Origin: Chloroflexota bacterium
GTDB lineage: Bacteria > Chloroflexota > Anaerolineae > B4-G1
NCBI GenBank assembly: GCA_024232355.1
Contig: JAAEPW010000512.1
Span: 1-10,082, forward strand
Length of the DNA stretch: 10,082 bases
Direction of reading: 5' to 3'
Below, in pieces: positions 1 to 10,082 of this stretch. The notes beneath the pieces were generated by a model. That model was not told the origin of the DNA. It ran no database searches and was given only the letters and a program-made list of their open reading frames with translations. Each line of letters opens with the position of its first letter. Position 1 is the first letter of the stretch. The position numbers and the translations under genes are program-made.

Positions 1-337
1 GACACAGTTCGGCCTGAGCGTCGTGGCATTGCTCCAAGAAGAAGAAGGTCTGATCTTCTGTTGCCGTCGGCACTCCAGCGTCTTCACAAGTGAAGCCAGG
101 ATCGAAGACGTTGCCGCATTCGCTGCAAGACGGTTCTTGGCTCTCCTCTGACCGCGGCCCCAACTCATCGAGATCAACATGACTTTCCAGAAGACAATTC
201 GTGCGGTCGTCCGTGATGTAGAAGTCACCCAGATCAGACCAGAACCGCTTCCCACGTGCCTTGTGCAGCGTGCAACCATCTAGTCGCCGGTTGATTCGTC
301 GTATCAACGATCTTTCGGTTATGTTCAATCTACTCAT
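1..337 (-). CDS. Hypothetical cysteine-containing protein, 3' end cut by window edge
   Basis: Only the first 112 codons are inside the window; no stop is reached. The start ATG (335-337) overlaps the stop of the gene to its right in an 8-nt ATGAGTAG junction, which supports translational coupling and this start. The N-terminus has a basic helix (LIRRINRRL, residues 11-19), followed by a compact segment with an FWSDLGDFYITDD stretch (32-44). After an acidic linker comes a cysteine-containing part: C71, C74, C84, C104, H105 and C112, with C71-x2-C74 looking like half of a zinc knuckle. I know similar basic INRRL-type openings from uncharacterised proteins of plasmids and phages, but I do not recognise a named family. 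A small metal-binding or nucleic-acid-associated protein is an inference. The composition and the clean junction make a real gene likely. Confidence 0.75.
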   Translation of the reverse strand, partial: MSRLNITERSLIRRINRRLDGCTLHKARGKRFWSDLGDFYITDDRTNCLLESHVDLDELGPRSEESQEPSCSECGNVFDPGFTCEDAGVPTATEDQTFFFLEQCHDAQAELC

Positions 338-719
338 CGTTGCCCCCCTGTTTCGGGAGGTTGTAGGTGTCTTGGAAATGGTCGCACAACTTGTCCCAAC
401 GATGTGTCTCACGCACCATGATCAGCAGGTTCTGTATGAACTGCCCCAAACGCGGTCTCGCGAACTGGGAAGGGACAAAGGGTAGGATGCTATCCTCAAA
501 ATCGGTGGCATCAACAGTTCCATCTTCAATCAGGGTCTTGTGGGCATCCTCCAACGCATCTTCTTGGCCCCGGACCTGTTCATCACTGAGCTTGTACTCC
601 AGTGCAAAGTGATCCTGAGGAGAACGGTCATAGTCTAACAACGCCAGAATCCTTCTGTCGCGTTGTTCCAACCGCGTAACTCGCTTCTCCAGTGCCGCCA
701 CTCTTTCAACAATGCTCAT
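330..719 (-). CDS. Hypothetical protein with short N-terminal coiled coil
   Basis: 129 residues. Two in-frame ATGs are possible, at 725 and 719. I chose 719 because the AGGAG at 727-731 lies 7 nt from it but only 1 nt from the upstream ATG. Residues 1-26 (MSIVERVAALEKRVTRLEQR and onward) form an amphipathic heptad-like helix typical of a short coiled coil. This is followed by an acidic middle (residues 34-78) and a C-terminal segment with aromatic and histidine residues (ETHRWDKLCDHFQDTY, 104-119). There is no signal peptide, membrane segment or catalytic motif that I recognise. The gene sits between the winged-helix-like gene and the cysteine-containing gene, overlapping the latter by 8 nt, so they are probably co-translated. 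Function unknown; an oligomeric accessory protein of the mobile element is a guess. Confidence 0.75.
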   Translation of the reverse strand: MSIVERVAALEKRVTRLEQRDRRILALLDYDRSPQDHFALEYKLSDEQVRGQEDALEDAHKTLIEDGTVDATDFEDSILPFVPSQFARPRLGQFIQNLLIMVRETHRWDKLCDHFQDTYNLPKQGGNDE

Positions 720-726
720 AATCATG

Positions 727-731
727 CTCCT
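727..731 (-). promoter_or_regulatory. Ribosome binding site deciding the 719 start
   Basis: AGGAG on the minus strand, 7 nt from the ATG at 719 and only 1 nt from the ATG at 725. The spacing favours the inner start. Confidence 0.7.
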
Positions 732-733
732 GT

Positions 734-835
734 CTAGAATGCTCGGGGGCTGTCGCAGAGTGCGACAAACAATCCCGCCAAGCTCAGGAGCCAGACTAGC
801 AATACCAGAAGTAGAAGCCGACGGACAGAATGGCC
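734..835 (-). other. In-frame transmembrane-coding segment after an amber stop
   Basis: Directly after the TAG stop (836-838) of the winged-helix-like gene, the same frame stays open for 33 codons to a second TAG (734-736). It reads GHSVRR, then about 23 mostly hydrophobic residues (LLLLVLLVWLLSLAGLFVAL), then CDSPRAF. This has the shape of a membrane helix with a positively charged N-flank. No ATG or GTG start lies in the frame; the only near-cognate starts are TTG or CTG codons inside the hydrophobic run, without a good ribosome binding site. It could be a membrane anchor reached by amber readthrough, the remnant of a longer gene, or chance. It fills the gap up to the next gene's ribosome binding site almost exactly. 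Confidence 0.35.
751..767. repeat. 17 bp inverted repeat, operator or hairpin candidate
   Basis: TGTCGCA GAG TGCGACA is a perfect 7 bp inverted repeat with a 3 nt centre, about 20 bp before the ribosome binding site of the coiled-coil gene. No T-tract follows on either strand, so it is not a classical terminator. It could be a protein-binding site or an mRNA hairpin. It also lies within the hydrophobic reading frame that follows the amber stop. Confidence 0.45.
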
Positions 836-1375
836 CTAAATTTCTCCGCCCTTGTCCAGACTCACGATCTTGTCGTCGCCGTTCTTCTTGATACTAACGG
901 AACAAGCAGACCCCGCATTCACCATCTTCCGGTTGAATTCTCTTTTTGCCTTTCTGATCTTCTCCCAGCCGAACCCCTCACCGGGCCATATAGCGTCGTG
1001 AAAAACCCCGATCTTCACAACGCCACGGTTCCATAGAAACCGCAGAATCTCTCTCCCTTGCGGCGTGGCCTTATTGAGTAGCTCCAGTGGTGGTTCGGGC
1101 AGAGCCGAATTCTCCTCCAGCCATTCGAGCATCCCAGCCCCAGGGCAGAGCCAGTACTCACCTGGAACAGGGATAGCGTACGAGAGGCGACCGGCTTGAC
1201 AGTGTTTCCAAATGGCTTTGAGCGTTGGGGGGATGAAGTCAGTTTCCCGAAGACGAAAACTCGATTGATCACAAGGCATGTACAGTACGTCTCGGGCGAT
1301 GCTAACCATCGCTGCATGCAGGTCCGCTTCTGGCATCGGACAATCGCCATGTTCTTCAATGAGGTCACGTTCCAT
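836..1375 (-). CDS. Hypothetical protein with winged-helix-like C-terminus
   Basis: 179 residues counted from the ATG at 1375. A GTG at 1381 is also open, but AGGAG at 1384-1388 is 8 nt from the ATG and 2 nt from the GTG, so the ATG is preferred. The first 30 residues are acidic. The middle (residues 47-90) is rich in W, P and G (LKAIWKHC, PGEYWLCPGAGMLEWLEEN). The C-terminal 75 residues (ATPQGREILRFLWNRGVVKI, then KIRKAKREFNRKM, then SVSIKKNGDDKIVSL) look like helix, helix, basic recognition helix and beta-wing, as in winged-helix DNA-binding folds. This assignment rests on pattern alone. The gene lies just downstream of an intrinsic terminator, so it probably has its own promoter in 1376-1427, but I see no convincing -35/-10 pair there. 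The role may be regulatory; function is otherwise unknown. Confidence 0.75.
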   Translation of the reverse strand: MERDLIEEHGDCPMPEADLHAAMVSIARDVLYMPCDQSSFRLRETDFIPPTLKAIWKHCQAGRLSYAIPVPGEYWLCPGAGMLEWLEENSALPEPPLELLNKATPQGREILRFLWNRGVVKIGVFHDAIWPGEGFGWEKIRKAKREFNRKMVNAGSACSVSIKKNGDDKIVSLDKGGEI

Positions 1376-1383
1376 TGTCACTG

Positions 1384-1388
1384 CTCCT
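1384..1388 (-). promoter_or_regulatory. Ribosome binding site deciding the 1375 start
   Basis: AGGAG on the minus strand, 8 nt from the ATG at 1375 but only 2 nt from the alternative GTG at 1381. Confidence 0.65.
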
Positions 1389-1427
1389 CTGGGGGTTGTC
1401 CGTTATCCTAGCCGATTGGCGAGCACG

Positions 1428-1459
1428 AAAAAACCCCGCCAATCTGAAGACTGACGGGG
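1428..1459 (-). terminator. Intrinsic terminator after the GYF-domain gene
   Basis: On the minus strand, CCCCGTCAGTC pairs with GATTGGCGGGG across a TTCA loop. All 11 positions pair, two as G-U wobbles, and the stem is followed immediately by six Ts. The wobbles pair properly only in the minus-strand transcript, which fixes the direction. It lies about 30 bp beyond the GYF gene stop and would separate that gene from the ones to its left. Confidence 0.9.
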
Positions 1460-1489
1460 GTCAAAGGGCGACATTTGATCGCTAACACA

Positions 1490-2188
1490 TCACTCTGAAA
1501 AACGCGGGCCGTCTGCAACCGACCAGTTGCCTTCGTCTGTGCTTTGAAGTTCTACCACCCAATTGGTGCGCATTGTCCCACCGAAACTATTCTGAGAATC
1601 GACCCATCCGTGAACGCTATAGAGACCATTACCCACATAGCGGACATTGTCTTCAGCGTTCTGACTGAAATCGAGCAACCCTTCGCTGAATTTGGCCGTT
1701 GAAGGGGATTTCAGATTGGCCTTAACAAACGATTGCGCGTACACCCATGCATCAATCTTAGCAGTAAGCCCATCTGGTTCATCGTTGGGTTCTGGATCAG
1801 GTTCCTCAGCTCGTTGATCATTAGGCCGTGGACCTTCGTTCAAGGTGCTCGGCGTACCAAGCCCGGAACAAAGCCCCAGGCACAAGATGAACGGAACGCA
1901 CACGGCGGCCAAGCACGCGATTTGTGTATTGGAAAGGGCCGCCTTCTTTCTTGCAGGGATCGATTGAGGCAAGGCTGGAACAGGCGGTGGGCGAGACGGT
2001 TGCACAACTATTGTGGGAAGTAGCCCCTTGACTCGTCGGGCAGGCACCCACTTCTGCGTGTGTGCCGCATACACCTGCGTCTCAGCCGTGATGATACCTG
2101 TCGCAGCCAATTGCTTGAGCTGCTTGCCGTCGAACGGACCGCAAGTTACGCCATTAGAGTCAGCGTACCAGAACTGGTTAGCCGCCAT
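1490..2188 (-). CDS. GYF-domain membrane protein with conserved C-terminal domain
   Basis: 232 residues. Residues 6-55 form a GYF_2-type domain: FWYADSNGVTCGPFDGKQL, then GIITAETQVYAAHTQKWVPA. GYF domains usually bind proline-rich peptides. Next comes a proline-rich linker (64-79), a basic patch (80-82, RKK) and one membrane helix (about 88-110). An acidic, proline-rich spacer (118-140) leads to a C-terminal globular domain (142-232) with SPSTAKF (161-167) and DSQNSFGGTMRTNW (197-210). I know this last pattern from many uncharacterised bacterial and phage proteins. The positive-inside rule puts the GYF domain in the cytosol and the C-terminal domain outside. The ATG is preceded by AAAGGGG with a 7-nt spacing. 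A promoter-like sequence upstream and a strong terminator downstream make it an independent unit, like a cargo gene. Ligand unknown. Confidence 0.85.
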   Translation of the reverse strand: MAANQFWYADSNGVTCGPFDGKQLKQLAATGIITAETQVYAAHTQKWVPARRVKGLLPTIVVQPSRPPPVPALPQSIPARKKAALSNTQIACLAAVCVPFILCLGLCSGLGTPSTLNEGPRPNDQRAEEPDPEPNDEPDGLTAKIDAWVYAQSFVKANLKSPSTAKFSEGLLDFSQNAEDNVRYVGNGLYSVHGWVDSQNSFGGTMRTNWVVELQSTDEGNWSVADGPRFSE

Positions 2189-2227
2189 TCGCTTGCCCCT
2201 TTCGAGAATGGACGATTAGCTGCCCAT

Positions 2228-2257
2228 ACTGTAGCAATCGCGTAACGGGAGTGTCAA
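2228..2257 (-). promoter_or_regulatory. Sigma70-like promoter candidate for the GYF gene
   Basis: TTGACA (2252-2257, a perfect -35) and TACAGT (2228-2233, 4 of 6 for a -10) are separated by 18 nt on the minus strand. The implied start site near 2221 leaves a leader of roughly 30 nt before the ATG at 2188. It lies just after the structured intergenic region. Confidence 0.5.
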
Positions 2258-2597
2258 CCAAGCAAAATGTACCCCGCCCGAAAGGAAGAAGCAAACGGGC
2301 ATACCGTGTCAGCTAGCTCAAGCCAACACGATAGCCCGTCAACCAAGGAGAATGATTCTAGGGGGGCAACAGAACGGTTGAGGTACTGCACTCAACCTTC
2401 TGCCGGGATCTCGGTGCCCTTACGTAAAACACCGGAGCACCACGTTGGTAAATGCCTTAACCAACGGCCCCCCGCATGTGACCACGACAACCTTATGGGT
2501 GGAAGAACACACCCGTCGTGGTCACTCCGAGCAAGCCGGGGCAACAACAGCAGCCAAAGGAGTCTGCTGGCTGCTGACGTGTCATCGGGTTAACCAA
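2254..2597 (+). repeat. Four dispersed TYAACCAA direct repeats
   Basis: Copies of T[C/T]AACCAA in the same orientation start at 2254, 2339, 2457 and 2590. The first two share a longer 10-mer, GTCAACCAAG (2253-2262 and 2338-2347), and the last two share TTAACCAAC. Spacing is irregular (85, 118 and 133 bp). The third copy also forms the 3' side of a helix, and the first overlaps the -35 element of the GYF promoter. They could be protein-binding sites or reflect duplication of RNA elements. Confidence 0.4.
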
Positions 2598-2609
2598 CCG
2601 ATGTGCCCC
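2276..2609 (-). ncRNA. Candidate large multi-helix structured RNA in a gene-free stretch
   Basis: The interval 2189-2622 has no credible protein gene but unusually dense pairing. Helix A is 2295-2300/2334-2339 plus 2305-2309/2326-2330. Junction B is closed by GGGGGGC 2361-2367 with GCCCCCC 2467-2473 (7 bp) and encloses three hairpins: 2370-2382/2391-2402 (12 pairs, one bulge), 2410-2416/2430-2437 (one bulge) and 2443-2449/2460-2466 (7 bp). Helix C is 2478-2488/2515-2525 (11 bp, perfect), continuing after an 8-nt bulge as 2497-2501/2510-2514. Junction D is closed by 2538-2542/2605-2609 and encloses 2548-2556/2568-2576 (9 bp) and 2583-2588/2598-2603 (6 bp). The helices abut without clashes. Strand is uncertain; minus is preferred because all genes run that way and helix A is then followed by a pyrimidine-rich tail. 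I match it to no known RNA family. Confidence 0.45.
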
Positions 2610-2622
2610 TGCTCGCTCAGCA

Positions 2623-2832
2623 CTAGTCGTCATATGCCTTCACTGCGGTGACACTGGGCCCCCAGGGTTTCTTTACTGGCTGAGTATTAAATACCACTCG
2701 CTTGCCAATCAGCCCGTCATCGAAGGGGTGGCCATCGCGATACTCGCCTTTGTCAAACTTGTATGCACGCCCATCTTGGCCATCAATTTCGCCCATCGTG
2801 TCAGATGTGATTCGGGTGATGATTCCTACCAT
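2623..2832 (-). CDS. Small cold-shock-like (OB-fold) protein, paralogue of its upstream neighbour
   Basis: 69 residues. The sequence opens with MVGIITRITSDTMGEI and continues with a DGRAYKFDKGEY segment, GLIGKRVVF and a closing PWGPSVTAVKAYDD. The order of short beta-strands, an aromatic strand in the middle (YKF) and a final strand ending in A-V resembles the cold-shock/S1-like OB fold that binds single-stranded nucleic acids. It lacks the classic KGFGFI RNP1 motif, so the call rests on the overall pattern. The closing PWGxSVTxV also ends the core of the protein encoded just upstream, which makes the two clear paralogues. AGAGGA lies 7 nt before the ATG. The gap to its neighbour is about 40 bp and AT-rich. 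The structured intergenic region follows its stop directly. Confidence 0.75.
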   Translation of the reverse strand: MVGIITRITSDTMGEIDGQDGRAYKFDKGEYRDGHPFDDGLIGKRVVFNTQPVKKPWGPSVTAVKAYDD

Positions 2833-2847
2833 GTCTTGGTCCTCTGC

Positions 2848-2865
2848 AATTAATTTAATTAATTT
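2848..2865. repeat. Tandem 9 bp AT-only repeat
   Basis: AATTAATTT occurs twice in tandem (2848-2856 and 2857-2865) in the short gap between the two cold-shock-like paralogues, just upstream of the second gene's ribosome binding site. It could aid translation as an unstructured leader or supply promoter-like sequence; nothing more can be said. Confidence 0.5.
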
Positions 2866-2871
2866 AACGAT

Positions 2872-3225
2872 TTATGAGCCTGTACCGGTTTCGGTGCGTG
2901 GCTCGACAATTCTTACGCTTGTTACGCTATCACCCCAGGGGCGGCTGGTCGTGGTTGGGTTGAAGCAAACAAACTTTCTACAGTCGGGGAAGTCACCTTC
3001 AATCACTTGGCTTTCGTCAAAGTGGTATGGGTTCGCTGCATTGCTGTTGGCAGTGTGAACACTGCATACACCATCAGCGATGGTCTCAACCCTGCCAAAC
3101 AGCTCGCCATCCTCAACGTCAAACTCTACTAGCCCTGCTGCTGGGCGATGGGGCTTGGGTGACTGTTGTTCCCACCATGTATCAGATGCTGATACTGGTA
3201 GCAGCATGTCGTCTTGATCATTCAT
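2872..3225 (-). CDS. Cold-shock-like (OB-fold) paralogue with N-terminal DDMLLP extension
   Basis: 117 residues from the ATG at 3225, which overlaps the preceding stop by 8 nt (ATGAATGA) and has GGAG 10 nt upstream. A longer reading frame to 3261 exists but would start inside the previous gene without a better signal. Residues 1-40 are an acidic extension opening MNDQDDMLLP, then a tryptophan pair (TWWEQ). The core (about 42-110) aligns with the next gene's product: GRVETIADGVCSV, then NPYHFDESQVIEGDF, KFVCFN and PWGDSVTSVRIVE. The aromatic strand NPYHF and the position of KFVCF fit the cold-shock OB pattern, so single-stranded DNA or RNA binding is inferred. The DDMLLP motif also occurs twice in the neighbouring upstream protein. 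Confidence 0.75.
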   Translation of the reverse strand: MNDQDDMLLPVSASDTWWEQQSPKPHRPAAGLVEFDVEDGELFGRVETIADGVCSVHTANSNAANPYHFDESQVIEGDFPDCRKFVCFNPTTTSRPWGDSVTSVRIVEPRTETGTGS

Positions 3226-3655
3226 CCCAGTCAATCTCCAGGGGCAAAAGCACATCCTCATTTTTGTTGAAGGTCTTGTTGTTTGCCTGTTGGCTCTTGT
3301 ACCTTTTTTCTAGAGCAGCAGTTTCACACGCGTCTGGATCAGGCGTACGGGCTTGGAAGCATCGACGCACATTGCGAATTGGTTCTCCCCGAGAAGAAGA
3401 GCTGTGGTCACTCGTGTCGTCCTTAGTGCCTCCATCGTAAGCAGCAGGCAGCAGCACGTCGTCAATGTCCTTAAGTAGCTGGGCATTCTCTGCACGCTTG
3501 CGGTCCATTGCTGGGCAACGTACTTCTTCAAGGCCATCGAATCCTTCTTCGATGAGAGGATCATTGTCGGTTACGTTGTTGGTCCGTGCCTTAGGGCTTC
3601 GACCTCCAATGGTAAAGGGGGCGTTGTGCACCATCACGTTTTTGGCGGTACTCAT
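3218..3655 (-). CDS. Acidic low-complexity protein with two D-D/E-V-LLP motifs
   Basis: 145 residues from the ATG at 3655, one base beyond the stop of the preceding gene, with AGGA 10 nt upstream. The frame stays open further up (to 3823), but that part lies inside the coiled-coil gene and is probably fortuitous. The protein is hydrophilic, with Asp/Ser-rich stretches (KDDTSDHSSSSRG, residues 78-90), little predicted fold, and two copies of one motif: IDDVLLP near residue 64 and EDVLLP near residue 133. The second is close to the C-terminal end (LEIDWDE). The next protein downstream begins with DDMLLP. Two cysteines lie at residues 99 and 110. It looks like a flexible adaptor whose short motif binds a shared partner. 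I recognise no family. Confidence 0.7.
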   Translation of the reverse strand: MSTAKNVMVHNAPFTIGGRSPKARTNNVTDNDPLIEEGFDGLEEVRCPAMDRKRAENAQLLKDIDDVLLPAAYDGGTKDDTSDHSSSSRGEPIRNVRRCFQARTPDPDACETAALEKRYKSQQANNKTFNKNEDVLLPLEIDWDE

Positions 3656-3656
3656 A

Positions 3657-4235
3657 TCACTCACTTCCTGGGGAAAAGGTATTGTCGCTCGGTTCATAGT
3701 GTGTTTTATTATCTGACTCTGGCAGCTTGGGCAACGCAATGGCGTTAACGTCTGCGATGGTCTGGTCTGCTCGGTCCATCCGTTGATTGCGGTCCTTAGT
3801 CTTTTGTGCGAGTTGATTTTCAAAGCCAGTCAGTTTGTTGAGTCTGGCTCGTAGTACCTTTACATCAAGGCTCAGGTTTTCGATTCTCTCAGCCCCTGCC
3901 TTGAGTTGATCAAGAGCTTCTGGTCCTGGGGAAGGTAAGTTCTCATACTGCTTGGCTCGCAGGGCAGCTTGCTGAGTTTCCTTTTTGAACTGCGTGAATG
4001 CTTTGACTTCCAGTTCCAGGGCTATCTCTGTGTACTTCAGTTGGGCTTTTGTTAGGTCAATCGGATGTGTAGGTGGCTCCAAGTGGTTGATGCCGTTTGA
4101 TTTGGCACCGTTCTCAAACAGATAGGCAGCATCTCCACCGCTGCTGGTCCGCATACTCATTCCAGCGTTGACGTTGACATATGGGCAGCCTTGACGTTTA
4201 GCGAATTCAATGAAGCTTTCGGTTAGTACGGGCAT
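3657..4235 (-). CDS. Coiled-coil protein downstream of the large terminase
   Basis: 192 residues. AAGGAG (4243-4248) sits 7 nt before the ATG, an ideal signal. Residues 1-55 look globular and include a Gly/Asn-rich part (YVNVNAGMSMRTSSGGDA). Residues 60-97 and about 105-160 form long charged helices with heptad-like leucines (QLKYTEIALELEVKAF, then ENLSLDVKVLRARLNKL), broken by a PSPGPEA turn, so a helical hairpin or coiled coil is likely. The C-terminal 20 residues are polar and probably disordered. Position after the terminase would fit a scaffold-like or packaging accessory protein in a phage, but no scaffold signature is visible and the assignment is positional only. The next gene starts one base after its stop. 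Confidence 0.8.
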   Translation of the reverse strand: MPVLTESFIEFAKRQGCPYVNVNAGMSMRTSSGGDAAYLFENGAKSNGINHLEPPTHPIDLTKAQLKYTEIALELEVKAFTQFKKETQQAALRAKQYENLPSPGPEALDQLKAGAERIENLSLDVKVLRARLNKLTGFENQLAQKTKDRNQRMDRADQTIADVNAIALPKLPESDNKTHYEPSDNTFSPGSE

Positions 4236-4256
4236 TTCGATTCTCCTTGGTTGGTT

Positions 4257-5873
4257 TTAGTCAGTAATCCAATTACCCCAGCTGGGGCTACGTCTCATCT
4301 CGCCTAGTGCACCCAGAAAGCCGATGCAGTCTTCCAAGTACGGGTTCTGTTGTGACTTGTCGGGGTTGGAGCAATATCGTCGAATCATTGCATGAACCGA
4401 ATCATCCCCTTCGTCCATGTCGATGGCACCTACCTTGAGCTTCTTCGTGGTGCTGCTTTCATGGGCTACTAGTAAGGCAAGGGCGAAAGCACTAAATGTG
4501 TCGCCATGACCGTCGTTGTCACGAGGTGAAGAAAGCCGTAGTCCATAGCTTTTCTCTTCAACCCTTAGTTTCAGCAAGTCGTTCTTTAGGGGTGAATAGT
4601 CGTAGCACTTGATTCTGCCGTCTTGGAAGGTCTCGATGGTGGTGCTGGCTTGCTCACGTAGGTTCGTGCTTGAGGGTGGTATCATTCTGACCCAGCTCTT
4701 AGAGCCCATTGCCTTTTTCTGGGAGCGAGTACGATGCCGGGTGATGGTTTCTAGTCGTTGGCCCAAGTGCTCTGCTTGCCATGGGTCAATTGCGACGGTT
4801 TCGAGGTTGAACTGTCTGTCCAATTCTATGATGGCTTTTTCGACTTGTTCGATTTGTACTTTGCCTCCAGATTGTTTTGGGGTCCATAGCATTGCCTTTG
4901 CAAGTCTGAGAGAACCTGTCACTTCGTTGACTCCCAGAACAACTACTGCACTGTTGTCACGGGTTAGGCCCAAGTCCACTCCTGCTACAAATCGCCAACC
5001 CTTCTCGTCGCCTAGCATGGGTTGATGGGCACCGTTGAATGCTCTCTCGATGTCGGCTGGGCTTAGAGCATCGCCACCACTTGCTGACCACTGATTCATC
5101 CACAATCGCTGGTAGGCAATTGCAGGTAGCATCCTGCGTTGTTCTGCTAAGCGATCTTCGGTTATCCAGCTGGCAACGGGGCCATCTAGGCGGCTGAATA
5201 TCCAATTGGGGTCATTGCGTATGGCTTCTCTGATTGACCATTGCCAGCTATCTACGAACCCTGCATTGGCAATGATGAGCATGAGGCAATTGGAACGTTT
5301 GGCTGCACTAGAGATGATGCTGTGCCAGAGTGATCCATCTCCACCCCAGTGAGTCAATTCGTCGCATACTACAAAGTCTGGCAAGATGCCATATGATGAT
5401 CCGACATCACTGGTGAAGATCTGTAGCGTGCCGCCTTTGCCTGGGTGGCCCTGTGCGATATTGACAATGCAATCGCGTTGGACTTCTAGTATTTCACCCA
5501 ACCATGGGTTAAGTCTGATCTTGGTGGCTACGGCATCTTTCAATAAGCCCGCTTGATCCTTGTCTGCTGCAAAGCAATAGCCCCTCAATGGTCTGTTGGC
5601 AAAGGCTAACAAGTTGATTGATACGGTTGCTATGCCTGATGTTTTGTCATGTCCACGACCTCTTTCCCAATAGGCTCGCATATGAGCTTGGAGCTTACGT
5701 TTTCTGCCTGTGACTTTGAGAATGGCTGGAGTAAGTGCATCGAAGTCTGTACGCTGCCATGGGTCCATACATTCACCGTATGGGCACACTACACCATCAG
5801 CATCAATGAGTAGGTCACTATGGAACTTAGATGGGTCAGTGGTGTACTGCTTGAATAGTGCTTGGTCAATCAT
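4257..5873 (-). CDS. terL: Phage-type terminase large subunit (ATPase plus nuclease)
   Basis: 538 residues, a usual length for large terminases. The N-terminal half is the packaging ATPase: MDPWQRTDFDAL (36-47) resembles the adenine-binding region; ERGRGHDKTSG (70-80) is the Walker A position, with K77-T78 present but Asp76 where Gly is normal; LPDFVVCDE (164-172) is Walker B with the catalytic Asp-Glu pair. The C-terminal half has RNase H-like nuclease motifs: VAGVDLG (D300), VAIDPW (D363) and GHGDTFSA (D458). In this family the enzyme cuts concatemeric DNA and drives it into a prohead. The start ATG overlaps the small-subunit-like gene by 8 nt, with GGAGG 9 nt upstream. Partner capsid and portal genes are not in the window, so it may serve a satellite, a prophage remnant, or a phage whose other genes lie outside. 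Confidence 0.88.
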   Translation of the reverse strand: MIDQALFKQYTTDPSKFHSDLLIDADGVVCPYGECMDPWQRTDFDALTPAILKVTGRKRKLQAHMRAYWERGRGHDKTSGIATVSINLLAFANRPLRGYCFAADKDQAGLLKDAVATKIRLNPWLGEILEVQRDCIVNIAQGHPGKGGTLQIFTSDVGSSYGILPDFVVCDELTHWGGDGSLWHSIISSAAKRSNCLMLIIANAGFVDSWQWSIREAIRNDPNWIFSRLDGPVASWITEDRLAEQRRMLPAIAYQRLWMNQWSASGGDALSPADIERAFNGAHQPMLGDEKGWRFVAGVDLGLTRDNSAVVVLGVNEVTGSLRLAKAMLWTPKQSGGKVQIEQVEKAIIELDRQFNLETVAIDPWQAEHLGQRLETITRHRTRSQKKAMGSKSWVRMIPPSSTNLREQASTTIETFQDGRIKCYDYSPLKNDLLKLRVEEKSYGLRLSSPRDNDGHGDTFSAFALALLVAHESSTTKKLKVGAIDMDEGDDSVHAMIRRYCSNPDKSQQNPYLEDCIGFLGALGEMRRSPSWGNWITD

Positions 5874-6402
5874 CGTCTTGCACCTCCAACGTCAAACCAT
5901 CCCATGGTGACTCTTGCTCTACATCAAGCTCAAGCAGTTTCAATGACTTATCACGTTCAGCGGATGCCCGGCTAATCTCAGAAGAGAACTTGAGCTTCTC
6001 TAGGGGCTTGAGGTTGTCGTACTCTTTTGTCAGCCATCTCTGTGCTAGGGCTGCATGACGCTCCCAACGCCCTGCGGTTTGTATGCAGGCAGCATCAGGA
6101 ATGGACACCTCGCCCTTGGCAGCCAGAACTGCATCTTCCAGCTTACGACGAAAGTCATTCAGGCGGTTTTCAACGTATCGACAATCCTTGGGCAGGCTAC
6201 CCGATTTCAAACCATGCCGAATCGCGTTGCGATTGTTGCGAGGTGCCCCTGGTTTTTTCTTCGGTTGGGCGTCCCCTGTGGGCTCGCTGTCGGCAGGGGC
6301 ACTTGGGGCAGGGGCAGGCTGTTTGGTGCCCACACGGGCCGTCTGAGGGGCTGCGGTGGCCGTTTGTGCCTTGCGGGTGTTGTTTTTGCGGGTGGTAGCC
6401 AT
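5866..6402 (-). CDS. Terminase small-subunit-like DNA-binding protein
   Basis: 178 residues. The first 48 residues are Ala/Pro/Thr/Lys-rich and probably disordered. Residues 50-67 carry KPGAPRNNRNAIRHGLKSG, a variant of the GAPxGNxNAxKHG signature common at the start of phage terminase small subunits and related proteins. The rest is helical: VENRLNDFRRKLEDAVLA (78-95), a middle part with WERHAALAQRWL (113-124), and a charged helix up to about residue 160, ending in an acidic tail. Small subunits recognise the packaging site and load the large subunit. The identification combines the motif with the 8-nt overlap with terL. No clear Shine-Dalgarno precedes the ATG at 6402, so translation may be weak or use another signal. 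The helix-turn-helix is not obvious. Confidence 0.7.
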   Translation of the reverse strand: MATTRKNNTRKAQTATAAPQTARVGTKQPAPAPSAPADSEPTGDAQPKKKPGAPRNNRNAIRHGLKSGSLPKDCRYVENRLNDFRRKLEDAVLAAKGEVSIPDAACIQTAGRWERHAALAQRWLTKEYDNLKPLEKLKFSSEISRASAERDKSLKLLELDVEQESPWDGLTLEVQDDD

Positions 6403-6442
6403 GGCGGTGTTACTGCTTTAGTGGGGGGTATGTAGCGTGGCC

Positions 6443-6461
6443 GTAATACCGGAAGTATTAC
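6443..6461. repeat. 19 bp inverted repeat upstream of the terminase genes
   Basis: GTAATAC CGGAA GTATTAC is a perfect 7 bp inverted repeat with a 5 nt centre, about 40 bp before the small-subunit-like start. No T-tract follows. It sits in the only sizeable gap (6403-6484) between the replication and packaging genes, so an operator is possible. I see no convincing promoter next to it; a TTGCAC at 6496-6501 lacks a well-spaced -10. Confidence 0.45.
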
Positions 6462-6484
6462 AGATCTCGCGTATATGCCTGTTT

Positions 6485-6718
6485 TTACGGAGTTTTGTGC
6501 AATATATGCGGGTTAGCGTAACCTGCGGCAGTGCATTTGGGCCCGGCATTGTGGCCGTTTGGCTGTTGGGGTGTTGTTTGGGTGCATGCGGGGGCAGTAC
6601 CCAGCCCTCGGTTTTCGGCCATGTCCCCATCTGGTTCATCATGCTCCACGGGTAGTAGGAACCCATACTTATTCCAAAAGAACTGCATGGCCGATGGAAG
6701 TGGTTTCTGTTCAGTCAT
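6485..6718 (-). CDS. Small hypothetical protein between replication and terminase genes
   Basis: 77 residues. The ATG at 6718 overlaps the previous stop by 8 nt (ATGACTGA), with GGGAG 7 nt upstream. The frame remains open to 6871, but that extension lies wholly within the zinc-finger gene. The N-terminal third (residues 4-28) contains an aromatic stretch, SAMQFFWNKYGFLLPVEHDE. The remainder is Gln/Pro/Thr/Asn-rich and contains two cysteines (CTQTTPQQPNGHNAGPKC), so it is probably flexible. I recognise no family. The gene might be a short partner of the upstream replication protein, given the coupling, but nothing in the sequence proves it. Confidence 0.6.
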   Translation of the reverse strand: MTEQKPLPSAMQFFWNKYGFLLPVEHDEPDGDMAENRGLGTAPACTQTTPQQPNGHNAGPKCTAAGYANPHILHKTP

Positions 6719-7376
6719 TAGCTCGCTCCCGCCTGGCCTGTTCGATAGCTTCCTTGATCTGCTCATGCGACCAGCCTCGTGCTCGTCGGCAGCAATACCA
6801 AGTGCAGTCCGGGTCGTCACATTCAGCCATGTGGTTCGCTTCCCGGACCTCAAAGCCGACATAACTCTCAACGTCTTCGGCTAGCGTGCTGGGATGCACA
6901 CCATGGAGCACGACCATGCGGCAAGCCTGAGCAGCCACCTCCAGCAACTGTGCCTTGCCCATTTTGTCCACGGCGTAATGCTCCGTGATCCACTCTTCAA
7001 GCTGCTTGCGGGCAGCAACGCCACGATCGTGCAAGCTTTCCGTGACCCAATCTTCATCGGCGGGTGCAGGTCTTACTGCCACGCGGGCCACGGGGGGAGA
7101 ATGCTGGGCTCCCTTCTTCCACTTGGCTTTCAGTTGGTTGACACGCTTCCGACGTCTCACGAGATTGTCCTGGTCGTAGAGGTGCGTGAGCAAATCCCAC
7201 TCGTCACCCCAAGCACCACAGGCATGGCACTTGAACCGATCTTTGTGGGGCGGCTTGTGGGGCAGCACGTGGAAGCCCCGCTCGCTTTCACAGAACGGAC
7301 ATGGCCATTGGGCACTTGCACTTTCGAAAGTAGGTGGGCCCATCAACTCCTCTGCGAGGTACCGTAGAAAGATCAT
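6711..7376 (-). CDS. Primase-type zinc-finger protein without a TOPRIM domain
   Basis: 221 residues from the ATG at 7376; AGGAG at 7384-7388 is 7 nt away, so the longer frame to 7403 is rejected. Residues 24-65 match the DnaG-like CHC2 zinc-binding pattern: WPCPFCESERGFHV (C26, C29) and FKCHACGAWGDEWDLL (C50, C53). In bacterial and phage primases this module reads single-stranded template. It is followed by a basic linker (74-89) and a helical region (112-165), but no TOPRIM or other primase catalytic motif is visible. Near the C-terminus a second cluster (H182, C186, C191, C195, C196) may bind another zinc. It ends in a charged helix and is coupled to the next gene. The context next to a RepA-like ATPase suggests a role in starting replication; it may need a separate polymerising partner. 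Confidence 0.8.
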   Translation of the reverse strand: MIFLRYLAEELMGPPTFESASAQWPCPFCESERGFHVLPHKPPHKDRFKCHACGAWGDEWDLLTHLYDQDNLVRRRKRVNQLKAKWKKGAQHSPPVARVAVRPAPADEDWVTESLHDRGVAARKQLEEWITEHYAVDKMGKAQLLEVAAQACRMVVLHGVHPSTLAEDVESYVGFEVREANHMAECDDPDCTWYCCRRARGWSHEQIKEAIEQARRERAND

Positions 7377-7383
7377 CTTGCAT

Positions 7384-7388
7384 CTCCT
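7384..7388 (-). promoter_or_regulatory. Ribosome binding site deciding the 7376 start
   Basis: AGGAG on the minus strand within AAAAGGAG, 7 nt from the ATG at 7376. It lies inside the longer alternative frame, which it argues against. Confidence 0.7.
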
Positions 7389-7395
7389 TTTCTTT

Positions 7396-7456
7396 GGTAA
7401 CAAATTACCGAATACCGCCCGGTAATTAGTGATTTGTTACTTTATTAATTTGTTAC
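7396..7456. repeat. Three copies of a 9 bp repeat in an AT-rich gap, origin or operator candidate
   Basis: ATTTGTTAC occurs at 7432-7440 and 7448-7456 as direct repeats with a 16 bp period, each followed by T. Its exact complement GTAACAAAT is at 7397-7405, inside the palindrome GGTAACAAATTACC (7396-7409). Diverged copies (ATTTGTT at 7517-7522 and neighbours; TACAAAT at 7491-7497) lie nearby. The gap 7404-7512 is markedly AT-rich compared with its flanks. The arrangement between a RepA-like ATPase gene and a primase-type gene resembles an iteron origin, but it could equally be an autoregulatory operator region. Confidence 0.5.
7403..7427 (-). promoter_or_regulatory. Leader hairpin before the zinc-finger gene
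   Basis: AATTACCG (7403-7410) and CGGTAATT (7420-7427) form a perfect 8 bp inverted repeat around a 9 nt loop. It lies in the leader of the zinc-finger gene and shares bases with the palindrome at 7396-7409, so the two cannot pair at once. This may be a binding site or a leader switch; no T-tract supports termination. Confidence 0.4.
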
Positions 7457-7512
7457 TACGTTGAGACCAAAAAGTAAGAAATTGAAAAATTACAAATTAC
7501 CTCGGGGTGCCA

Positions 7513-8595
7513 CTAATTTGTTGGCAGCCGCCACCATGACACTCGGCCTTCCTTCTTGATGTTTGGTTTGACAATGCCCAACTCTTCTCGGGCCTTCTGC
7601 AACGTGCCCGTAGGGGGGAACCCTGCCGCCTCTGCTGCTTCTTGCAGTGGCTTGGCCTTGTACCACGTGCCCGGCTCCATTTGCTCCAGCAGCCAGTCAG
7701 CGGCTTTCTGGTGGCCAACCTGCTTCTCGGGCTTTCTGGGGGCGTCACCGAAGTCCAACCCCTTCCCCGTAACCAAGAAGCCGACGGGTTGTGGTCGCAA
7801 TCCAAGATTCTCCTTGAGCATCCTCACGCGGCACCACTTGCTTGTCTTGTCCGGTTGGTCGATGGCCAACTGTGCTCGGACCATCGCCACAATCGCGTTG
7901 CTGCCACGGCTGCTGTCGGCGTTGATTTCCTGGTCGTCCGGCACCTTTTTCGTATGGTGAATGATGACGATGGCCGTTCTGGTCCGCTCGGCAATGCTGG
8001 CAAGCGATTGCAGAACTGGCGTGATCTTCGAGCTGTTCTCATCCCCGCCGTGGGCACCTCGCAGGCTGTCTACTACAACCAACTGGATCTTGTACCTGTT
8101 GACCACGTCTTCGATACGTTCCATGTGATCGGGGTCTTCTAGGTCCACAGAGCGCAACGGATCATCTTCAAACGGCACCTTGATCCGTTCAAACGGCATG
8201 CCCCAATCCTTCAGGCGTTGCACTGTGATAGCCGATGTGCCCTCTGTGTCGCACCACAGCACGAAGCCCGGCTTGACTGGCCCCTTGGTGCCGCTGAACC
8301 ATGTACAGTTCCTGAGAATGATCGTGCGAGCCAGGGCATAGAGTGCGAAGGCACTCTTGCCGACGCCAGCAGGGGCCAGAAGCATCGTGAGCATCGCAAA
8401 GGGAATCCAGCCCGGCACTAGGTACTTTATCCCGTCAACTTTCGTGGCCACGTCTGCCATGCTTTTTGTCCTTACTTTATTCTCCCCCGTGGCCGTGGTC
8501 TGTGAGCCGATTGTGATTGCATCTGTTCCCTTGGCTGCTCGTTGGAGAGCTTGGGCTAATTTGGATTTTGATTTCTTGCGTTCATGCTGTGACAT
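7513..8595 (-). CDS. RepA/AAA_25-type RecA-fold ATPase with C-terminal winged-helix-like region
   Basis: 360 residues. AGAGG lies 8 nt before the ATG. After a basic, flexible N-terminus, a RecA-like core begins near residue 55: APAGVGKS (74-81) is Walker A; VLWCDTEG (112-119) carries an acidic pair typical of the family; LVVVDSLRG (172-180) is Walker B; IVIIHHTKK (209-217) matches the conserved sensor strand with paired histidines; SSRGSNAI (228-235) is a typical RepA/AAA_25 motif that often includes an inter-subunit arginine. Residues about 290-358 resemble a winged helix (QKAADWLLEQM, then TGTLQKAREELGIV, then GRVSWWRLP). Relatives are plasmid RepA hexameric helicases and phage or satellite replication ATPases. 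It probably unwinds or loads at the element's origin. It follows the excisionase-like gene by about 95 bp and precedes the repeat-containing gap. Confidence 0.88.
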   Translation of the reverse strand: MSQHERKKSKSKLAQALQRAAKGTDAITIGSQTTATGENKVRTKSMADVATKVDGIKYLVPGWIPFAMLTMLLAPAGVGKSAFALYALARTIILRNCTWFSGTKGPVKPGFVLWCDTEGTSAITVQRLKDWGMPFERIKVPFEDDPLRSVDLEDPDHMERIEDVVNRYKIQLVVVDSLRGAHGGDENSSKITPVLQSLASIAERTRTAIVIIHHTKKVPDDQEINADSSRGSNAIVAMVRAQLAIDQPDKTSKWCRVRMLKENLGLRPQPVGFLVTGKGLDFGDAPRKPEKQVGHQKAADWLLEQMEPGTWYKAKPLQEAAEAAGFPPTGTLQKAREELGIVKPNIKKEGRVSWWRLPTN

Positions 8596-8689
8596 TTACT
8601 ACACCTCTTGAAGGGTGGCCCGGCCTGAATCAGAGCAGAGGTGCCGACCCCAACTCAGACCGAGCCTGGCGGTTGCAATCCGCCGTGGG

Positions 8690-8929
8690 TTACTTGTAAA
8701 AAACTCGTTCTCTGGTTTGCTTCTTGCGGCGTCCTTTGGGCTGTGGTGGCGTGTGCATCCGCGACAGTTCGAAGGCCTCAAGGTCTTCTTCCTTGATCCG
8801 CCACTTGGGCCGACTGCTGCCAACACGACCGATGTTCATGGCACGTAGCACGCCTGTGTGAATCCAGCCAAGAACGGTATGTTCACCAATCCCGTAACGC
8901 TCTTGGATTTGCTTTACGCTGTAGGTCAT
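8690..8929 (-). CDS. Excisionase/MerR-like helix-turn-helix protein
   Basis: 79 residues. The N-terminal 55 residues match the short winged HTH of phage excisionases and HTH_17 proteins: YSVKQIQERYGIGEHTVLGW (3-22) is the HTH, IHTGVLRAMNIGR (23-35) the turn into the wing, and RPKWRIKEEDLEAFELSR (40-57) the wing strand and closing helix. A basic tail (KGRRKKQTRER) may contact DNA. Such proteins bend attachment-site DNA to favour excision or act as small regulators. GGGGAG is 8 nt from the ATG. It opens the rightward-to-left replication module, after the terminator of the integrase unit, with a palindrome 29 bp upstream that may be its own operator. Confidence 0.85.
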   Translation of the reverse strand: MTYSVKQIQERYGIGEHTVLGWIHTGVLRAMNIGRVGSSRPKWRIKEEDLEAFELSRMHTPPQPKGRRKKQTRERVFYK

Positions 8930-8957
8930 GTGTTTTGCTCCCCGTAAACTAGCGTTT

Positions 8958-8974
8958 GGGTACGTTACTTACCC
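8958..8974. promoter_or_regulatory. Near-perfect 17 bp palindrome, operator candidate
   Basis: GGGTACGT T ACTTACCC matches on 7 of 8 arm positions around a central T. It lies 29 bp upstream of the excisionase-like start, within the only region that can hold the promoter for the replication module (8930-9041). The core GTTAC also occurs in the repeats at 7432-7456. I could not identify a convincing -35/-10 pair beside it. Confidence 0.45.
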
Positions 8975-8995
8975 ATGCTGGGGAGTTACCTTATT

Positions 8996-9012
8996 TGCGG
9001 CAGAAAGCCGCA
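8996..9012. repeat. Short GC-rich hairpin upstream of the excisionase-like gene
   Basis: TGCGGC AGAAA GCCGCA is a perfect 6 bp stem with a 5 nt loop. No T-run follows on the minus strand. It lies between the integrase-unit terminator and the excisionase-like gene and may be an mRNA leader hairpin. Confidence 0.35.
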
Positions 9013-9041
9013 GAATGCCCTGAGAATCCTAGGCATATCGC

Positions 9042-9093
9042 AAAAGAAAAGCCGTCTACCCTTACCTTCTCAAAGGTAAATGGGTAAACGGCT
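9042..9093 (-). terminator. Intrinsic terminator of the integrase unit
   Basis: On the minus strand the stem is AGCCGT-T-TACCC, a 2-nt bulge, then TTACCTT, a TGAG loop, AAGGTAA, GGGTA-G-ACGGCT, followed by TTTTCTTTT. That gives 18 Watson-Crick pairs plus one G-U pair and a pyrimidine tail. It lies about 30 bp beyond the stop of the gene coupled to the integrase and isolates that unit from the replication module. Confidence 0.92.
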
Positions 9094-9122
9094 GTTGTGG
9101 CTGTCAAACAACAGGCCGAAGG

Positions 9123-9719
9123 CTATTCTTCCTCGCGTTGCCTGGCTTCGATCTCGCGTTCCACAATGTGATTGAGGGCCTGGTCCGAAAAGTCGCCCTG
9201 CCACTTCACCAAGTGATAGCCAATCTCCTCGCGGCAGCAGGCAGCGTCGTAGCCCGCTTTCTTAGTCTTGCCGTCAAATTTCTCCTTGAGGAACTTGGAA
9301 ACCGTCTTTGGGGTGGTGTCTGCTATCTCCGCAAGCTTCTTGAGGTCTGCCGGTTCGTGATTCAGGACGGAAGCAGCATTCGCCTTGCCACCCGGCTGAT
9401 AGTCGTGGTGCTTGGCCAGGGCAGCAATGATCTTGACATCGCAGGGCTTCTTGTCATCCGTCGGCCTACCAAGTTGCTTCTCCTTACTTTGCCCACCCAT
9501 AGCTCGCCATGCGGCAAGAACTGACCGACCGGAATCCTGGAGACGGTAGGACTTCGTCCCCGCCGGGTTGTGCATCGTCCAAGTACTAACTACCCACTCC
9601 TCAGCCTCCGCGATCTGGGCACAGAAGGCAAATGGCTCGTCCACGGAAATATCACCGTTCGTTTCCAGGTACGTTAGGAACTCCCAGAGTTCAGGCGGGT
9701 ACTCCTTCAGATCCTTCAT
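9123..9719 (-). CDS. Hypothetical protein with HTH-like segment, coupled to the integrase
   Basis: 198 residues. The ATG overlaps the integrase stop by 4 nt (ATGA), so the two are probably co-translated. The N-terminal half (residues 1-75) is a compact, Trp-rich segment (PPELWEFLTYLETNGD, then EEWVVSTWTMH, then VLAAWRAMG). A basic linker contains LGRPTDD (83-89). Residues 123-148 (EPADLKKLAEIADTTPKTVS and onward) look like a helix-turn-helix, followed by a part with a CC pair (161-162) and a helical, charged tail. I do not recognise the family. Similar genes with an LGRPTDD-type linker and an HTH are, as I recall, frequent beside integrases in planctomycete genomes. A recombination accessory or regulatory role is inferred from coupling alone. 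Confidence 0.8.
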   Translation of the reverse strand: MKDLKEYPPELWEFLTYLETNGDISVDEPFAFCAQIAEAEEWVVSTWTMHNPAGTKSYRLQDSGRSVLAAWRAMGGQSKEKQLGRPTDDKKPCDVKIIAALAKHHDYQPGGKANAASVLNHEPADLKKLAEIADTTPKTVSKFLKEKFDGKTKKAGYDAACCREEIGYHLVKWQGDFSDQALNHIVEREIEARQREEE

Positions 9720-10082
9720 ACCTCACCACCTTTTCCCCCCGTGGCCTGTGGATACAGCCAAGCCCGAACATGATCGGCAACCGTCTCCAATCGGTCATCG
9801 CCTATCCGTTGTCGGTAGTGTTCGTCAATGCCGGGATCGGCGTGACCCATGACCAAGCGTATGGCAACCTGATCTAGCGTGGCATCGGCTTCGGTGCGAA
9901 AGGTATGCCGCAGCCAACTGAACTTGGCTGTGGTGCCAATTTTGGCAGTTGCGAGAAACGTTGTCACATCCCGGCCAAGAGTGTCGGACCGGTATGGGGT
10001 ACCTCGGTCAGTAACGAACACCAATGCCTCGGCAGCCTCCTCGGGTTCGGGGCGTTCAGCTATGGCGTCCTTCAAGGCAGCC
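9716..10082 (-). CDS. Tyrosine recombinase/integrase, C-terminal catalytic part (5' end outside window)
   Basis: About 121 residues are visible; the frame stays open through the right edge, so the TTG at 10075 is not the real start. The visible part holds the second half of the catalytic domain: FSWLRHTFRTEAD is box II with its arginine, VMGHADP carries the conserved later histidine, and DEHYRQRI has the nucleophilic tyrosine. The first His of the usual HxLRH box is replaced by Ser; as I recall, planctomycete-type recombinases often have a non-histidine there. The box I arginine would lie beyond the window. It should catalyse integration and excision of the element at an attachment site outside the window. 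A gene of unknown function is coupled downstream, followed by an intrinsic terminator. Confidence 0.9.
   Translation of the reverse strand, partial: AALKDAIAERPEPEEAAEALVFVTDRGTPYRSDTLGRDVTTFLATAKIGTTAKFSWLRHTFRTEADATLDQVAIRLVMGHADPGIDEHYRQRIGDDRLETVADHVRAWLYPQATGGKGGEV

What the first reader, a model, noticed from the sequence alone, without database searches (positions are those of the whole stretch)
2276..2609. Unassigned large structured RNA candidate with two multibranch junctions
A 434 bp stretch without a credible gene carries nine mostly perfect helices that nest without conflict. A 7 bp GGGGGGC/GCCCCCC stem (2361-2367/2467-2473) closes a junction around three hairpins. An 11 bp stem (2478-2488/2515-2525) follows, and a 5 bp GC stem (2538-2542/2605-2609) closes a second junction around two hairpins. 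Such density is far above what the rest of the window shows. Large ornate RNAs (GOLLD and ROOL classes) and packaging RNAs are known from phages, but I see no diagnostic match, so this may be a new class. The location downstream of a terminase gene cluster makes a phage-life-cycle role attractive, though speculative.
Basis: partly seen in the sequence, partly recalled or inferred. Interest (0 to 1): 0.78.

Follow-up and report, generated by a model that had tools for sequence, protein, structure and literature searches.

The report
Orphan structured RNA after packaging genes
Next to the DNA-packaging genes of a virus-like island, probably from a planctomycete bacterium, lies a gene-free stretch of about 330 bases that would fold into an unusually stable and well-defined RNA shape; it matches no catalogued RNA family, but without relatives to compare it remains a good candidate, not a proven new RNA.

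Summary
The helices are real and beyond chance. The 434-nt gap (2189-2622) folds at z -6.8 (plus) and -7.1 (minus). The signal is confined to 2294-2622 (329 nt): z about -10 on minus and -7 on plus. The gene-proximal 105 nt are unremarkable and carry a promoter-like site for the next gene. It has a three-way junction, a hairpin, a four-way junction and a long 3' hairpin, and begins directly after the last small gene that follows the terminase. Rfam: no match at the curated thresholds.

No homologue was found, so covariation, the decisive test, could not be run. Two related islands have structured stretches in the same place, but other places in control loci score as well with models of this RNA, and structure is not enriched in such gaps (6 of 33 against 24 of 156). 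Homology is therefore not shown. Best reading: a structured RNA at the 3' end of the packaging-operon transcript. Whether it acts in trans or only as a 3' UTR is open.

The parts
2294..2622 (-). Core structured RNA candidate, 329 nt; 121 predicted base pairs
   Evidence: z -10.05 (200 shuffles) and -9.56 (100 shuffles); mean pair probability 0.94, ensemble diversity 19.8 against 80 +/- 29 in 40 mononucleotide shuffles
2527..2620 (-). Domain A: outer stem 2527-2536/2611-2620, inner stem 2538-2543/2604-2609 closing a three-way junction with hairpins 2583-2588/2598-2603 and 2548-2557/2567-2576
   Evidence: probabilities of these four stems 0.93-0.99, a further 3-pair stem 0.65; z -5.55 for 2526-2622 minus
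2478..2525 (-). Domain B: 11-pair hairpin 2478-2488/2515-2525 with inner 5-pair stem 2497-2501/2510-2514 and an 8-nt one-sided bulge
   Evidence: probabilities 1.00 and 0.98; z -4.37 minus, -5.03 plus for 2475-2526
2361..2473 (-). Domain C: GGGGGGC/GCCCCCC stem (2361-2367/2467-2473) closing a four-way junction with three hairpins (2443-2449/2460-2466; 2413-2420/2426-2433; 2368-2374/2398-2404 plus 2376-2382/2391-2397)
   Evidence: probabilities of these stems 0.93-0.99, a further 3-pair stem 0.66; z -5.45 for 2359-2474
2341..2357 (-). Small hairpin D between domains C and E, 5 pairs
   Evidence: probability 0.82; weakest element
2294..2340 (-). Domain E: long hairpin 2294-2300/2334-2340 and 2302-2314/2321-2333 (20 pairs, one bulge), followed by the interrupted U-rich stretch TGCTTCTTCCTTT; terminator-like at best
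   Evidence: probabilities 0.94 and 0.99; z -7.53 for 2293-2341; not among the terminator-like sites
2254..2597 (-). Four direct copies of TTGGTTRA at 2590-2597, 2457-2464, 2339-2346 and 2254-2261 (the last outside the core)
   Evidence: 5 in the whole window, 4 of them here, these four on minus; pattern chosen after the fact, 8 of 1000 shuffles of the 434 nt hold some 8-mer with one free position 4 times
2228..2257 (-). Promoter-like site TTGACA-18-TACAGT with TG before the second hexamer, perhaps for the GYF gene
   Evidence: consensus scan, 10 of 12; the scan found 3 sites in the window against 5.5 in shuffles, so weak
2623..2832 (-). 69-aa gene directly upstream; two unpaired bases lie between its stop codon and the first predicted pair
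   Evidence: gene caller; one relative, P0121, 88% identical; no family match
1490..2188 (-). GYF_2-domain protein gene downstream, possibly its own transcription unit
   Evidence: PF14237, E 5.3e-12; terminator-like site after it
1434..1459 (-). Intrinsic terminator-like hairpin with T run after the GYF gene
   Evidence: 11 pairs, tail TTTTTTCGTG
4257..5873 (-). Terminase large subunit
   Evidence: PF03354, E 2.3e-7; phrog_9, E 1.7e-32; 587 relatives among the 7,995 candidates scored

Best explanation
A structured non-coding RNA of about 330 nt (window 2294-2622, minus strand) is made as the 3' end of the transcript of a terminase (packaging) operon. Transcription passes the 69-aa stop codon, the RNA folds into domains A, B, C and E, and most transcripts end at or just after hairpin E; a separate promoter-like site then serves the GYF gene. 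The compact, single-state fold with hairpins stacked almost flush on closing stems suggests that it persists as an RNA in its own right, bound by itself or a protein, in the late phase of the island. Shown: the fold, its excess over chance, no called gene, the gene order. Inferred: transcription, strand, end points, persistence. The molecular role beyond this is a guess.
For: Core z about -10 on minus; ensemble diversity 19.8 against a minimum of 28.5 in 40 shuffles; domains A, B, C and E are each better than shuffles on their own; no coding signal; whole-core z better on minus than plus (-9.6 against -7.1); it follows the stop codon of the last small gene before the gap directly; domains A and C share short strings in matching places, TTAACCAAC and GGGGCAACA on plus, though repeats this long are common in shuffles (longest repeat 9 or more in 154 of 500). 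In one search, 10 of 12 stretches (window included; chosen after their structure was seen) have a lower z on the operon strand, clearly so in L001 12959-13390 (-7.4/-5.3), L002 (-4.8/0.0), L074 (-6.6/-4.8), L085 (-6.8/-3.7), L003 (-4.7/-0.6) and L118 (-4.0/-2.9).
Against: One sequence only: no homologue, so no covariation. Strand evidence from folding is mixed: the minus-plus energy difference is reached by 10.5% of 400 shuffles; the G-U excess on minus (20 against 3) is largely base composition (shuffles 23.8 against 10.9); domain B alone is better on plus (-5.03 against -4.37); and in scans normalised by composition plus often scores better over A-C (2451: -4.17 plus, -3.42 minus). In one search, L001 12966-13060 and L004 go the other way (-5.38/-6.34 and -0.46/-1.21), L123 is even (-4.75/-4.65), and the two L075 stretches are weak (-1.9, -2.7). 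Structured gaps are common in this group: 24 of 156 other gaps have z below -4 on one strand, 6 of 33 post-terminase gaps do, the window among them, so the position is not special. No promoter-like site lies just upstream, and hairpin E lacks a proper U run.
Confidence: 0.42

Rival explanations
1. Cis-acting 3' UTR only: the folds terminate or protect the packaging-operon mRNA and insulate the GYF unit, with no separate RNA product.
For: Position right after the last operon gene and before a promoter-like site; related islands can carry hairpins with U runs after the terminase genes (L001; L085). Predicted access to the GYF Shine-Dalgarno bases is lower in a transcript from 2622 (0.02-0.07 unpaired) than in one from 2222 (0.36-0.98).
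Against: One hairpin would do for that; two multiway junctions and a 20-pair hairpin are more than needed, and the clearest terminator-like site of the window (1434-1459) is short with a T run. The start-site effect is not beyond chance: 2189-2293 has z -1.09, and 6.7% of 300 shuffles give as long a helix with the Shine-Dalgarno region.
Confidence: 0.28
2. DNA-level element: the inverted repeats and the TTGGTTRA repeats are protein-binding or recombination sites (operator, origin, packaging or attachment site) that happen to fold.
For: Four same-direction TTGGTTRA copies, one overlapping the -35-like hexamer; plus strand also folds well (-7.1 to -7.5) and in places better; its fold has few G-U pairs, 3 against 10.9 in shuffles.
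Against: Branched, nested pairing and one dominant ensemble are not needed for sites in duplex DNA; no repeat of 18 bases or more links the region to another place in the window.
Confidence: 0.2
3. Decaying or repeat-derived hairpin DNA (REP- or MITE-like debris) without a present function.
For: Structured intergenic gaps are frequent in these genomes and many short stretches there fold as well or better; no homologue in what was searched.
Against: Stems are nearly perfect and nest, which decay would spoil; only short chance matches in 392 genomes of the phylum by DNA search, no long repeat in the window.
Confidence: 0.1

Closest known systems
GOLLD and ROOL RNAs
   Same: Large structured RNAs of phages and prophages; elaborate folds; function poorly understood (passages of PMC12286853).
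   Different: About 329 nt here against 659 nt for one ROOL and over 800 nt for many GOLLD RNAs (passages); those are often near tRNA islands, and no tRNA is in the window; no Rfam match; no pairing of 5 or more bases between unpaired runs of the predicted fold.
PLE inter-inverted-repeat transcript (phage satellite of Vibrio cholerae)
   Same: Abundant non-coding transcript of a phage satellite (passages of PMC7567579).
   Different: That one lies between inverted repeats and has antisense matches to leaders of satellite genes; no inverted repeat of 18 bases or more surrounds this region, and transcription here is unknown.
phi29 packaging RNA (recalled; seen only in reference entries)
   Same: A structured RNA beside DNA-packaging functions.
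   Different: No Rfam match, different size (recalled, about 170 nt), no portal family seen here; the link to packaging rests on neighbourhood only.

Membership tests
Any Rfam 15 family (GOLLD, ROOL and pRNA being among them is recalled) | Covariance model score at or above the gathering score | tested here: not met
   0 matches on the whole window; at E up to 10 on 2150-2680 only a 12.2-bit hit to snoR35, gathering score 40
GOLLD/ROOL class | Location near tRNA genes (usual, not obligatory) | tested here: not met
   ARAGORN finds no tRNA or tmRNA in the window; only 10 kb held
New conserved structured RNA class | Covariation across homologues | not testable with these tools
   No homologue of the RNA found; close relatives P0001, P0121, P0123 have no DNA within reach
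New conserved structured RNA class | Specific match of a structure model to the same place in related islands | tested here: inconclusive
   Unfiltered, single-sequence models R2 and R1 put their best hit at the post-operon stretch in L001 9000-17000 (12.0 and 11.7 bits) and in L002 (13.0 and 17.4 bits). But in 5 control loci other places reach 17.7 bits (R1; 17.1 in a structured stretch, L087) and 17.2 bits (R2; structured stretches of L087 and L122). In the filtered search of 40 sources R1 finds neither (best other 16.7 bits, L076) and R2 ranks L081 (17.3 bits) above L002 (13.1 bits)
Intrinsic terminator array | GC-rich hairpin followed at once by a U run | tested here: not met
   Of the 8 terminator-like sites in the window one, 2397-2376 minus, lies in the region, with a poor tail; domains A, B and C have no U run after them
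Riboswitch or leader of the GYF gene | Structured leader that changes access to the start site, conserved with the gene | tested here: inconclusive
   Predicted access differs between long and short transcripts, but the gene-proximal 105 nt are not specially structured on minus (z -1.09) and the helix is not beyond chance; the one GYF relative with DNA (L124) has an ORF upstream and z -2.29 there

The most novel reading that the evidence does not exclude
The first known member of a new class of ornate RNA carried by terminase islands of planctomycetes, released from the packaging-operon transcript and working as an RNA assembly or as a partner of the packaging machinery, with counterparts of diverged sequence at the same place in other such islands (L001 and L002 being candidates).
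Probability: 0.15. Interest if true: 0.75.

Novelty: new variant of a known kind. Interest (0 to 1): 0.4.

Why it matters
If real, it would add a compact structured RNA to the few that I know of from phage-satellite-like elements, and would give a tractable case (329 nt, one dominant predicted state) for asking what large RNAs of mobile elements do. It also draws attention to planctomycete islands that carry a terminase with no capsid gene seen so far. As it stands it is a well-supported fold without comparative proof.

Tried and rejected
Homologue hunt. blastn of the 434 nt: no match in phages or plasmids. 392 genomes of the phylum: 23 genomes with E up to 0.1, short matches only, against about 39 expected by chance. 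The one near a terminase (G109, 7 kb away) lies inside an integrase gene and was dropped. RNA model R1: 0 of 396 genomes at E 0.05 and 0 of 40 at E 5; these searches are insensitive, since the 40 include the genome of L002 whose unfiltered hit was not returned. DNA of the L001 stretch: in 40 terminase-bearing genomes only itself; of the L002 stretch: itself and three matches of at most 31 bases. Two patterns in viral contigs: 0, and 5 unrelated repeat places. Neighbour proteins in viral contigs: the terminase by its own sequence none, the 69-aa and the 129-aa protein none, GYF one (L124), whose upstream region holds an ORF and folds at z -2.29.

Homology to L001 12959-13421 and L002 4134-4440. 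It looked good at first (same place, best hits of both models, shared strings of 8-9 bases), but control places score the same or higher, and a sequence alignment of the pieces shows little. Dropped as a claim.

Post-terminase structured RNA as a general feature: not enriched (6 of 33 against 24 of 156 gaps: 8 shuffles, an approximate standard deviation, own gene caller). Gaps were cut at 480 nt; other gaps above 480 nt were left out; the L002 stretch, in a gap above 1500 nt, is not among the 33; the L001 and window gaps were scored on their first 480 nt because the caller missed coding parts beside them.

Start-site hiding by the fold: predicted, but not beyond chance. Strand from folding: mixed. 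Protein-coding explanation: no support.

Full report
What is there. The window (10,082 bases) reads as one block of genes on the minus strand: an integrase fragment (PF00589, below its cut-off; phrog_1), a 198-aa protein without a family, a helix-turn-helix protein (PF12728), an AAA_25 ATPase, a 230-aa protein, a possible terminase small subunit (phrog_509 at E 0.054 only), the terminase large subunit (PF03354; phrog_9, E 1.7e-32), four small genes of which the last codes for 69 aa, then the gap 2189-2622, a GYF_2 protein (PF14237), and three further small genes. The large terminase has 587 relatives among the 7,995 candidates scored; of the 120 listed, the two that carry an organism name are planctomycetes. 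The host of the window itself is not known.

The observation. The stems given with coordinates are exact, and they belong to the predicted minimum-energy fold. The fold beats all 100 shuffles on each strand (z -6.77 plus; -7.06 minus). In a tiling of the window it is the only strong outlier. Cutting the gap into pieces shows where the signal lies: 2294-2622 has z -10.05 on minus and -7.49 on plus, while 2189-2293 has -1.09 and -2.59 (core repeated with 100 shuffles, -9.56 and -7.07). The core has 121 predicted pairs at mean probability 0.94 and an ensemble diversity of 19.8, against 80 +/- 29 (minimum 28.5) in 40 mononucleotide shuffles. It is a well-defined single fold, not just a GC-rich stretch. 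Strong folds are not rare in related genomes, however: in a scan of 200-nt windows over 29 sources the best place in this window ranks 49th of 17,798.

Anatomy on the minus strand, 5' to 3'. Domain A: a 10-pair stem, a one-one mismatch, a 6-pair stem and two hairpins. Domain B: an 11-pair hairpin with an inner stem and an 8-nt bulge. Domain C: a 7-pair G/C stem closing three hairpins with short linkers. D: a weak 5-pair hairpin. Domain E: a 20-pair hairpin with one bulge, followed by a broken U-rich stretch. Then a promoter-like site (2257-2228) and the GYF start codon. Domains A and C share two nine-base strings in matching places, but a longest repeat of 9 or more is seen in 154 of 500 shuffles. 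TTGGTTRA occurs five times in the window, four times in the gap; a pattern of this kind occurs four times in 8 of 1000 shuffles.

Which strand. Gene order favours minus. The core z-scores favour minus, but the raw energy difference is reached by 10.5% of 400 shuffles, the G-U counts are mostly explained by composition, domain B alone is better on plus, and scans normalised by composition often favour plus over domains A-C. So minus is likely from gene order; folding does not settle it.

Search for relatives. Rfam gives nothing at its thresholds. DNA searches in phages and plasmids give nothing. The terminase was used as a bait: 6 loci in genome contigs, two of them distant relatives in other phyla, 9 in viral contigs, then 24 of 396 (E up to 1e-20), 41 of 397 (E up to 1e-60), 1 of 149 and 1 of 43 genomes (the last two at E up to 1e-130; the draws overlap). 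None is close: the best terminase identity with DNA in hand is 58-59% (G109), whereas proteins at 95% and 69% are in the protein database without reachable DNA. The 69-aa gene has one relative there, 88% identical.

Positional look-alikes. L001 (a Pirellulales MAG) has a 463-nt stretch after its terminase-proximal genes with z -6.63; a 142-aa ORF ends just before it but was not called by the gene caller. L002 (a Planctomycetota MAG) has one starting right after a stop codon with z -4.36 on the operon strand and +0.43 on the other. Models of the window's domains give their best unfiltered hits at those places (L001 searched over 9000-17000 only). The control decides against a claim: in five other terminase loci chosen for structured stretches elsewhere, the same models reach 17.7 and 17.2 bits, against 11.7-12.0 in L001 and 17.4 and 13.0 in L002. 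The filtered search over 40 sources did not single them out either. Over 33 first gaps after the terminase, 6 have z below -4 on one strand, against 24 of 156 other gaps (with the limits told under Tried and rejected). Other islands may simply have unrelated hairpins there.

How it may work. The most economical reading is an RNA made as the 3' end of the packaging-operon transcript. Its start follows the 69-aa stop codon, and its end is probably near hairpin E, after which a new unit (promoter-like site, GYF gene, terminator-like site at 1459-1434) begins. The GYF gene looks like separately inserted cargo: its relative P0123 has the same first 60 residues and a different C-terminal part. Whether the RNA lives on as a free molecule or only serves the mRNA cannot be told; I lean to the former because two multiway junctions are more than a 3' end needs.

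Comparison with the known. It resembles GOLLD and ROOL in being an elaborate RNA on a phage-like element (passages of PMC12286853), and the abundant non-coding transcript of PLE satellites in being on a satellite-like island (passages of PMC7567579). It matches no Rfam family, is shorter than the GOLLD and ROOL examples seen, and has no tRNA neighbours in the 10 kb held. Literature searches (listings only, apart from passages of the two papers named) showed me no description of this RNA or of such islands in planctomycetes; the library holds open-licence papers only.

Verdict. Observation confirmed and sharpened; interpretation partly supported; class status unproven for lack of any homologue.

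Noticed in passing
window 1-10082; G109 (L114, L115), G877 (L118), G533 (L074), L117, L121: The terminase genes seem to sit on compact islands. In L115 and L118 an integrase lies upstream. Of 15 distinct proteins scanned from L115, L118, L117, L121 and L074 (10 with PHROGs; 9 with Pfam) none is a portal or major capsid protein; L117 has one head-maturation-protease-like protein. Not all genes were scanned, and the relatives in viral contigs (L007-L015) were not.
   Followed up: partly
window 1490-2188; P0122 and P0123: GYF proteins with identical first 60 residues but a different C-terminal part: a mosaic gene, which together with promoter-like and terminator-like sites looks like an inserted cargo gene.
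   Followed up: no
window 8930-9122: Second structured intergenic stretch in the window (z -5.3 on minus, -4.4 on plus); by eye a terminator-like hairpin after the 9123-9719 gene plus another hairpin.
   Followed up: no
L001 12959-13421 and L002 4134-4440: Structured stretches after the terminase operon in two other islands, not shown to be related; L002 folds well on the operon strand only.
   Followed up: partly
L087 around 1001, L086 around 15501, L084 around 3651 and 1551: Other very stable folds in planctomycete genomes, not examined beyond use as controls.
   Followed up: no
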